From an uncultured Granulicella sp. (GTDB lineage Bacteria; Acidobacteriota; Terriglobia; Terriglobales; Acidobacteriaceae), in assembly GCA_937873145.1 (NCBI GenBank), contig CALMVK010000257.1, positions 5,086 through 43,095 on the forward strand: a stretch of 38,010 nucleotides of DNA, given 5' to 3'. Below are positions 33,226 to 34,027 of the stretch, in pieces (the first letter of the stretch is position 1; every line of letters begins with the position of its first letter). The notes under the pieces were generated by a model. The model was not told the DNA's origin. It searched no databases and was given only the letters and a program-made list of their open reading frames with translations. The translations under genes and the position numbers were made by a program.

Positions 33226-33305
33226 GAGAAGTTGGATAGCCGGAGCCGATCGCGACCGTCATCCGGTCAGCGAAAAGCGTTGTGTTGTTCTCTTTACCGG
33301 CATAG

Positions 33306-33317
33306 CATATGCATATG
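33306..33317. promoter_or_regulatory. Palindrome CATATGCATATG over the small-ORF start codon
   Basis: A perfect 12-base palindrome covering both candidate start codons of the small gene at 33309/33315. TTGTGT at 33280-33285 and TAGCAT at 33303-33308, 17 bases apart, form a weak -35/-10 pair. An autoregulatory operator is plausible for a toxin-antitoxin cassette but rests on position only. Confidence 0.35.
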
Positions 33318-33458
33318 GTTCGAGACATTCACAAGCTGGCTGACTGGTTGATGAAGGTGACTCGCGAAGGAATCGCAATTGAAAACAAGATTCTGGAGTG
33401 GAAGCAGTCTGAGGATAAGGCAAGCCGGGTAGTGGAGCACCATACGAAGGCAAGTTAG
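33309..33458 (+). CDS. 49-codon helical protein, candidate antitoxin of the zeta-like kinase
   Basis: A small, previously overlooked frame of 49 residues (47 if the second ATG at 33315 is used): MHMVRDIHKLADWLMKVTRE is the first part, followed by GIAIENKILEWKQSEDKASR and an end in VVEHHTKAS. It is charged, predicted helical throughout, and has no signal peptide. Its stop TAG overlaps the GTG start of the kinase by one base (TAGTG), implying coupled translation. Neither start has a ribosome site, so leaderless or very weak initiation is possible. Position and size suit an antitoxin or partner of the kinase. No family was recognised. Confidence 0.65.
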   Translation: MHMVRDIHKLADWLMKVTREGIAIENKILEWKQSEDKASRVVEHHTKAS

Positions 33459-34027
33459 TGCCGACGTTTACTGTGGTAGCGGGCCCAAATGGCTCAGGCA
33501 AGAGCACGTTGACTCGGTTGGGTCGCGAGACATTTCAGGATACGGTGGCGCTTGATCCGGATGCTGTCGCGAAGTCTATGCAAGCCGTGGGAACGGAGAG
33601 CGGATCGGCTATGGATGCTGGCCGAGCGGTTCTTCTTAGGGCGGAAGAGCTACTCTCAAACAAACAGAGCTTTCTGGTCGAAACGACGCTTTCAGGAAAT
33701 ACCTATCTGCGCATGATGAAGCGCGCCAGAGAACAGGGGTACACCGTCGTTCTGCTCTTTGTTGGCACCTCCGACGTATCCATCAATCTCCGAAGAGTTC
33801 GAGGCCGTGTAAGAAAAGGTGGCCATAACGTTCCTGAAGCAGATCAACTTCGACGGTACCCGCGCAGCATGGAGAATCTAGGGCGAGCGTTCGAGTTAGC
33901 AGACGAAGCCGTTGTCTTTGACAACTCAAGCGAATCACACGTAAAGCTCGCGGTAAAAGACAAGGAGAAGACAACGCTGTACGAACCTCTGCCGGGATGG
34001 GCGACTTTTCTCCGAAAAGAGACGTAA
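33458..34027 (+). CDS. Zeta-toxin-like P-loop kinase (COG4185 type)
   Basis: A 189-residue single-domain P-loop protein. Walker A GPNGSGKST is at residues 9-17, ALDPDAVAK (31-39) supplies the substrate-site Asp, ETTLSG (75-80) follows, and GGHNVPEADQLRRYPRS (121-137) is the hallmark lid region of the chromosomal zeta-like group. Zeta toxins phosphorylate UDP-N-acetylglucosamine and block cell-wall synthesis; whether this branch does the same is not established. GTG at 33458 overlaps the preceding small gene. The DNA is visibly less GC-rich than the flanking xseB and synthase genes, which suggests acquisition. Confidence 0.88.
   Translation: MPTFTVVAGPNGSGKSTLTRLGRETFQDTVALDPDAVAKSMQAVGTESGSAMDAGRAVLLRAEELLSNKQSFLVETTLSGNTYLRMMKRAREQGYTVVLLFVGTSDVSINLRRVRGRVRKGGHNVPEADQLRRYPRSMENLGRAFELADEAVVFDNSSESHVKLAVKDKEKTTLYEPLPGWATFLRKET

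What the first reader, a model, noticed from the sequence alone, without database searches (positions are those of the whole stretch)
33309..34027. Overlooked small gene coupled to a zeta-like kinase: candidate toxin-antitoxin cassette
A 49-codon helical frame ends in TAG, overlapping the GTG start of a zeta-type P-loop kinase by one base. The DNA is AT-richer than its flanks (xseB and the polyprenyl synthase gene), and the pair sits alone between housekeeping genes. Chromosomal zeta-like proteins of the COG4185 type often lack an identified antitoxin; the small protein looks nothing like the classical epsilon antitoxin as I know it.
Basis: partly seen in the sequence, partly recalled or inferred. 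Interest (0 to 1): 0.65.

Follow-up and report, generated by a model that had tools for sequence, protein, structure and literature searches.

The report
Tiny antitoxin-like gene beside zeta kinase
A soil bacterium carries a real, conserved gene of about 47 codons that overlaps the gene of a toxin-like kinase, and the pair looks like a toxin-antitoxin module whose antitoxin has shrunk to a single short helix.

Summary
A small frame (33309-33458) overlaps the GTG start of a 189-aa zeta-family kinase (33458-34027) by one base. It is a real gene: it accompanies every full-length kinase match of 47% identity or more (13 of 13 with the window's own), is the only frame open in 14 of 14 loci, and evolves under constraint. 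Close orthologues start at the second ATG (33315), so 47 aa is likelier than 49. No Pfam or NCBIfam family fits it; it is predicted to be one amphipathic helix. The kinase has the zeta/PezT/AvrRxo1 fold and conserved catalytic residues but no GTxR motif. At 12 of 28 loci the kinase is broken or gone while the small frame is open; the reverse was not seen. The kinase clade (100/98) groups with cyanobacterial kinases (99/94), whose 70-84-aa partners begin with a similar helix (hhalign P 3.4e-4; suggestive only). Best reading: a type II-like toxin-antitoxin module with a new, minimal antitoxin family. Toxicity, neutralisation and substrate are untested. New variant of a known kind.

The parts
33309..33458 (+). 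small gene, putative antitoxin (49 codons from the first ATG; likely start 33315, 47 codons; TAG stop 33456-33458)
   Evidence: found with the kinase or its remains at 28 loci; dN/dS well under 1; only frame open in 14 of 14 loci; predicted single helix
33456..33460 (+). TAGTG: stop of the small gene overlapping the GTG start of the kinase
   Evidence: overlap of 4 or 1 nt, or abutment, in the 14 loci read, with a TTG or GTG kinase start in 13 and ATG in 1
33458..34027 (+). zeta-family P-loop kinase, putative toxin, 189 aa
   Evidence: Pfam Zeta_toxin 44.6 bits, cut-off 22.3; model pLDDT 94.7; zeta toxin 1gvn_B Z 15.4 over 176 residues
32974..33225 (+). upstream neighbour xseB, same strand; 83 nt from the small gene here, about 9-13 nt in L003-L006 and L018
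34102..35109 (-). downstream neighbour, convergent polyprenyl synthase gene; follows xseB directly in some genomes without the pair

Best explanation
A two-gene toxin-antitoxin module of the zeta superfamily. Shown here: two co-directional overlapping genes, constraint on both, a zeta-fold kinase with conserved catalytic residues, and a strictly linked small protein. Inferred: the small protein is made first and in excess because the kinase starts at a poor codon (GTG/TTG) at the small gene's stop. Its single amphipathic helix, with a conserved core D-I-x-K-L-A-x-x-L-x-K-x-x-R-E-G-V-x-x-E, docks on the kinase and blocks its active site, as epsilon does to zeta. When the small protein is not replenished, the freed kinase phosphorylates a small metabolite and stops growth. 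The substrate is probably not bound the way zeta binds UNAG, since the GTxR motif is missing. The helix may be what remains of a longer partner (helix plus C-terminal segment) of the kind found with the nearest kinases, in cyanobacteria and on their plasmids.
For: Linkage: 13 of 13 full-length kinase matches at 47% identity or more have the small frame; the next best, 38%, has another partner. 28 loci in all. dN/dS 0.02-0.21 in 12 of 31 pairs; frame control. Kinase: Pfam; 35 invariant columns in 13 kinases, including Walker A, D33, D35, E75, R113, R117, GGH 121-123, R132, R133, R136, N156; 13 of these stay invariant in 54 kinases, K15, D35, R113, R117, GGH and R133 among them; fold. Kinase broken or absent with the small frame open at 12 of 28 loci. 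In G041 and G061 about a dozen kinase codons remain after the small gene's stop, so the kinase was lost there. No kinase without the small gene at 61 xseB sites in 59 genomes of the genus. Kinase relatives on 464 of 72,556 plasmid records, with a small hypothetical gene upstream in 5 of 6 regions opened, overlapping the kinase in 4. Kinase tree: type I partner = one side of a branch, 100/98. Helix similarity to the partner of cyanobacterial kinases: hhalign P 3.4e-4; L055 10.2 bits, L253 8.3 bits.
Against: No toxicity or neutralisation data. The loss asymmetry is weaker than it looks: the kinase gene is about four times longer, so ten lesions (G041, G061 and G024 counted once) all in the kinase have probability about 0.1 under a length-proportional null (hand calculation; the 50:50 figures use the wrong null). 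The site is a stable chromosomal one in several genera, no evident mobile element. The small family itself has no match on plasmids. No DNA-binding domain was found. The helix similarity spans 23 columns, has hhalign probability 38%, was tested after I had seen it by eye, and is one of three profile comparisons of this family, the other two negative; L054 and L056 score no better than shuffles, and one of 5000 shuffles of L055 beat it. The conservation moment of the helix is not significant (p 0.19). The single-helix model comes from two sequences. No complex could be modelled.
Confidence: 0.72

Rival explanations
1. The small protein is an accessory subunit or chaperone of a metabolic zeta-fold kinase that is not a toxin; the pair is an ordinary small-molecule kinase operon.
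For: Same site between xseB and the polyprenyl synthase in several genera; constraint on both genes; polynucleotide kinases match the fold at nearly the same Z as zeta (15.2 against 15.4).
Against: An accessory subunit should not outlive its enzyme, yet at 12 of 28 loci the small frame is open without a whole kinase. Presence is patchy: 17 of 61 xseB sites in the genus. Plasmid relatives opened lie beside transfer and maintenance genes.
Confidence: 0.15
2. The small frame is a translational coupling leader that sets kinase expression, its peptide having no binding role.
For: Tight overlaps and weak kinase start codons in the 14 loci read.
Against: Amino-acid-level constraint, an amphipathic pattern (hydrophobic moment, permutation p 0.0055), and open frames after kinase loss.
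Confidence: 0.08
3. A defence (abortive infection) module in which the small protein senses a phage factor and releases the kinase.
For: General precedent for toxin-antitoxin modules in defence (abstract in the listing); patchy distribution in the genus.
Against: PADLOC: no match for the small protein, only partial ATPase matches for the kinase (best 4.1e-6). Neighbours are housekeeping genes. 4 of 50,697 phage records hold a kinase relative, which decides nothing.
Confidence: 0.1

Closest known systems
epsilon/zeta and PezAT (1gvn, 3q8x, 2p5t)
   Same: P-loop kinase fold (Z 15.4, 15.3 and 14.8); antitoxin gene upstream (gene order recalled)
   Different: kinase 189 aa against a 272-residue 1gvn chain; no GTxR motif; partner is a predicted single helix with no Pfam match, not an epsilon or PezA protein
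Rv0366c-Rv0367c, non-canonical PezAT-like pair (PMC6362051; passages read; sequences not fetched)
   Same: short chromosomal zeta-like kinase without the GTXR UNAG motif, small upstream partner
   Different: partner there is 129 residues with a predicted ribbon-helix-helix domain; here about 47 aa with no DNA-binding domain found. TASmania (PMC6504116; passages read) notes zeta-type toxins paired with ParD-like antitoxins
AvrRxo1-Arc1 (4z8q, 4z8t, 4z8u, 4z8v; PMC4938570, passages read)
   Same: zeta-fold kinase, 183 residues aligned, Z 14.5-14.6; small helical partner
   Different: partner gene is downstream there and most are 81-98 aa; AvrRxo1 is a secreted effector that phosphorylates NAD (title in listing)
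EzeT of E. coli (PMC4803016, passages read)
   Same: zeta toxin held by a non-epsilon antitoxin element
   Different: EzeT is one polypeptide with a cis antitoxin domain; here two overlapping genes

Membership tests
zeta/PezT toxin superfamily (kinase) | match to the curated Zeta_toxin profile | tested here: met
   PF06414 44.6 bits, cut-off 22.3
zeta/PezT toxin superfamily (kinase) | zeta fold | tested here: met
   1gvn_B Z 15.4, rmsd 3.3, 176 aligned; bacterial polynucleotide kinases tie at Z 15.2, so the fold alone does not single out zeta
zeta/PezT toxin superfamily (kinase) | Walker A lysine, catalytic acidic residues, arginines | tested here: met
   K15, D35, R113, R117 and R133 invariant in 54 kinases, E75 nearly so; equivalence to zeta K46, D67, E116, R158 and R171 (named in PMC6356619) is inferred from order, not from a residue-level superposition
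zeta/PezT toxin superfamily (kinase) | GTXR UNAG-binding motif (definition from PMC6362051) | tested here: not met
   no GTxR in the 189-aa sequence (read by eye); ETTLSG stands at the conserved E75
zeta/PezT toxin superfamily (kinase) | phosphorylates UNAG or another UDP-sugar and is toxic | not testable with these tools
   needs expression and assay
epsilon antitoxin family | sequence family membership of the small protein | tested here: not met
   no antitoxin family in Pfam for the window protein or 13 homologues at E up to 1
epsilon antitoxin family | three-helix bundle | tested here: inconclusive
   one continuous helix predicted, pLDDT 85, from only two sequences
type II toxin-antitoxin module | two-gene operon, small antitoxin gene upstream and overlapping or abutting | tested here: met
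   window and the other 13 loci read (chosen for having the small frame); operon inferred from the overlap
type II toxin-antitoxin module | toxin is toxic alone and neutralised by the antitoxin protein | not testable with these tools
   bench test proposed
type II toxin-antitoxin module | antitoxin DNA-binding domain and autoregulation | tested here: inconclusive
   no DNA-binding domain in Pfam scans; epsilon also lacks this role (PMC4803016)

The most novel reading that the evidence does not exclude
Short zeta-like kinases often come with unnamed families of small upstream partners that track kinase clades, and in one acidobacterial clade the partner has been reduced to one helix of 40-57 residues by shedding its C-terminal domain. 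It would be among the smallest protein antitoxins (by recall), and the 23-residue shared segment would be the kinase-inhibiting element.
Probability: 0.4. Interest if true: 0.65.

Novelty: new variant of a known kind. Interest (0 to 1): 0.5.

Why it matters
Short zeta-like kinases are common (464 of 72,556 plasmid records hold a relative of this one), and the partners looked at here carry no family name. A defined partner family makes them testable as toxin-antitoxin pairs, and a single-helix antitoxin would show how little protein suffices to silence a zeta kinase. The loci with the kinase broken and the small frame open are a natural record of toxin loss.

Tried and rejected
Type I (window) against the type III partner set (A4) and the type II set (A5) by hhalign: no relation. 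Type II against type III: not convincing (P 0.031). Only A9 (four partners of cyanobacterial kinases and one from a Paenibacillus plasmid), picked after I saw the likeness by eye, matched. A chance explanation for the small frame was rejected on conservation, not on length. The reverse-strand 49-aa frame at 33294-33443 was rejected: minus-strand frames over the small gene are open in only 8, 4 and 7 of 14 loci and its Pfam match is below cut-off (DUF7694, E 0.014). Weak matches of the small protein (NDUS4 E 0.053; Trm10 E 0.017) are far below cut-offs and taken as chance. In the class-wide search two of 22 matching genomes (G143, G246) had matches inside long frames and were dropped; in the phylum-wide search so was one of 7 (G513). 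Ten paper searches listed no title or abstract start that describes a partner of this kind; I saw listings, and passages of six papers; most subscription journals are not held.

Full report
What is there. The small frame 33309-33458 and the kinase frame 33458-34027 are as described, in DNA of 0.51-0.56 GC between richer flanks; other genes of the same stretch are as AT-rich. The kinase matches Pfam Zeta_toxin (44.6 bits, cut-off 22.3) and AAA_33. The small protein reaches no Pfam or NCBIfam cut-off and has no PADLOC match.

Is the small frame real? The kinase was sought in 150 related genomes: 32 had a match. All 13 matches that are full length at 47% identity or more, the window's own included, have the small frame before them; the next best, 38%, has another partner. 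I took 14 loci with the frame (those 13 and L018, whose kinase is split): overlap is 4 or 1 nt or abutment, and the kinase starts with TTG or GTG in 13 and ATG in one. dN/dS of the small gene is 0.02-0.21 in the 12 of 31 pairs where dS could be computed, with dS above 1 in all but one. The small frame is open in 14 of 14, the two other forward frames in 0 of 14. The other loci opened among L002-L031 are more distant kinases with different or no visible partners, or fragments.

How widespread is it? With the small profile, 22 of 399 genomes of the class match (two dropped as chance) and 7 of 297 of the phylum (one dropped). The kinase profile matches 96 of the same 399 class genomes at E up to 1e-10, many of them remote relatives. 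I assembled 28 loci with the small frame. In 16 the kinase is full length. In 12 it is broken or absent: a stop (G010); frameshifts (G035, and L058, a metagenome assembly where error is possible); a contig break beside transposase-like sequence (G008; DNA read by eye); truncation or fragments (G363, G291, G231); no kinase found (G020, G024, G041, G061, G198). The small frame is open in all 28, by which they were found, but G020 lacks an ATG start and G024 has an altered, shorter C-terminus. In G041 and G061 about a dozen kinase codons still follow the small gene's stop. Counting G041, G061 and G024 once gives ten lesions. As the kinase is four times longer, ten of ten in the kinase is only suggestive (about 0.1 under a length-proportional null, hand calculation); the open frame after the kinase has gone is the stronger point.

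The site. xseB was found in 59 of 62 genomes of the genus. Of 61 places read with up to 2.5 kb downstream, the window included, 17 have the small gene (10 with full kinase, 3 broken, 4 without), 44 have neither, and none has the kinase alone. In ten places without the pair the polyprenyl synthase lies within about 350 nt of the start of xseB, so the empty site exists. G048 keeps the pair next to the synthase, away from the xseB found. The order MTHFR-like gene, xseB, small gene, kinase or its pieces, synthase also holds in G356, G418, G291 and L058 (Edaphobacter aggregans record), so the insertion is older than the genus. For G075, G363, G437, G337 and G231 none of these neighbours was found in the flanks read.

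Relatives of the kinase. A scan of genome contigs gave 80 loci, the best of more; I examined 79 (L111 left out). In 16 of 79 the script printed no upstream frame, and several others have only frames that look like chance. By eye two partner families stand out: type II (EPTDE-like motif, 28 or 29 loci) and type III (AG-P-I-Y and PDG motifs, 6 loci there, L055, more in acidobacterial genomes and on plasmids). Ten partner proteins scanned, eight of them of types II and III, reach no Pfam or NCBIfam cut-off. On plasmids 464 of 72,556 records hold a kinase relative. Of six regions opened, five have a small hypothetical gene upstream of the kinase, overlapping it in four and 136 nt away in one; the sixth has none annotated. 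One lies between kleE and genes of TrfB-related and ParA-type proteins. On a Chondrocystis plasmid the partner is whole and the kinase frame ends at 104 aa, with a transposase gene next.

Tree. 85 kinases (window, 53 of the 80 scan loci, 31 others; split kinases left out; partner labels by eye, 34 labelled other; two pairs of near-copies; rooted at the midpoint). Type I is one side of a branch, 100/98; it groups with the cyanobacterial kinases, 99/94, the order within that group not being resolved; type II needs two changes, type III six. The partner profile A9 (four partners of cyanobacterial kinases and one of a Paenibacillus plasmid) aligns to the type I profile over 23 columns, VRDIHKLADWLMKVTREGIAIEN with NSEFSEWGKKLERLAQAGVQKEI (hhalign P 3.4e-4, probability 38%); the broader sets do not. 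Single partners score 10.2 bits (L055, beaten by one of 5000 shuffles), 3.0 (L056) and 2.8 (L054, both within shuffles), and 8.3 for L253 (no shuffle control). I read this as suggestive of descent with loss of the C-terminal part, not as proof.

Structure. Kinase model pLDDT 94.7; VIA-align matches 1gvn_B (Z 15.4), 3q8x_B (15.3), bacterial polynucleotide kinase (15.2), PezT (14.8), AvrRxo1 (14.6). The small protein is modelled as one helix, residues 2-48, with a significant hydrophobic moment (p 0.0055) but not a significant conservation moment (p 0.19).

Mechanism and limits. Catalytic residues are conserved; the GTxR motif is absent, as PMC6362051 reports for another short zeta-like kinase thought to use a different substrate (passages). 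The inhibition model is by analogy with epsilon/zeta (PMC4803016, PMC5923241; passages). Toxicity, neutralisation, binding and substrate remain to be tested.

Noticed in passing
L066, L071, L075, L079, L081, L101, L116 and others: A recurring small family (52-69 aa in the rows aligned) with an EPTDE-like motif lies just upstream of zeta-like kinases in Bacteroidota, Pseudomonadota, Campylobacterota and others; three members scanned reach no Pfam or NCBIfam cut-off.
   Followed up: partly
L054, L056, L059, L062, L070, L074; L142, L145-L148, L150-L153, L155, L156; L253, L255-L258: A second partner family (about 65-86 aa, AG-P-I-Y and PDG motifs) accompanies related kinases on chromosomes and plasmids; five members scanned reach no Pfam or NCBIfam cut-off.
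   Followed up: partly
L260 (Chondrocystis plasmid) 874-1421: Partner gene whole, kinase frame ends at 104 aa, transposase gene next to it: the same toxin-lost, partner-kept state in a cyanobacterium.
   Followed up: partly
L259 (Nostoc plasmid) 862-1110: A partner homologue, annotated MmgE/PrpD family protein, stands before XisH/XisI genes with no kinase annotated in the stretch read.
   Followed up: no
window 33226-33308: 83-nt spacer between xseB and the small gene with no clear ribosome-binding site; in L003-L006 and L018 the spacer is about 9-13 nt.
   Followed up: no
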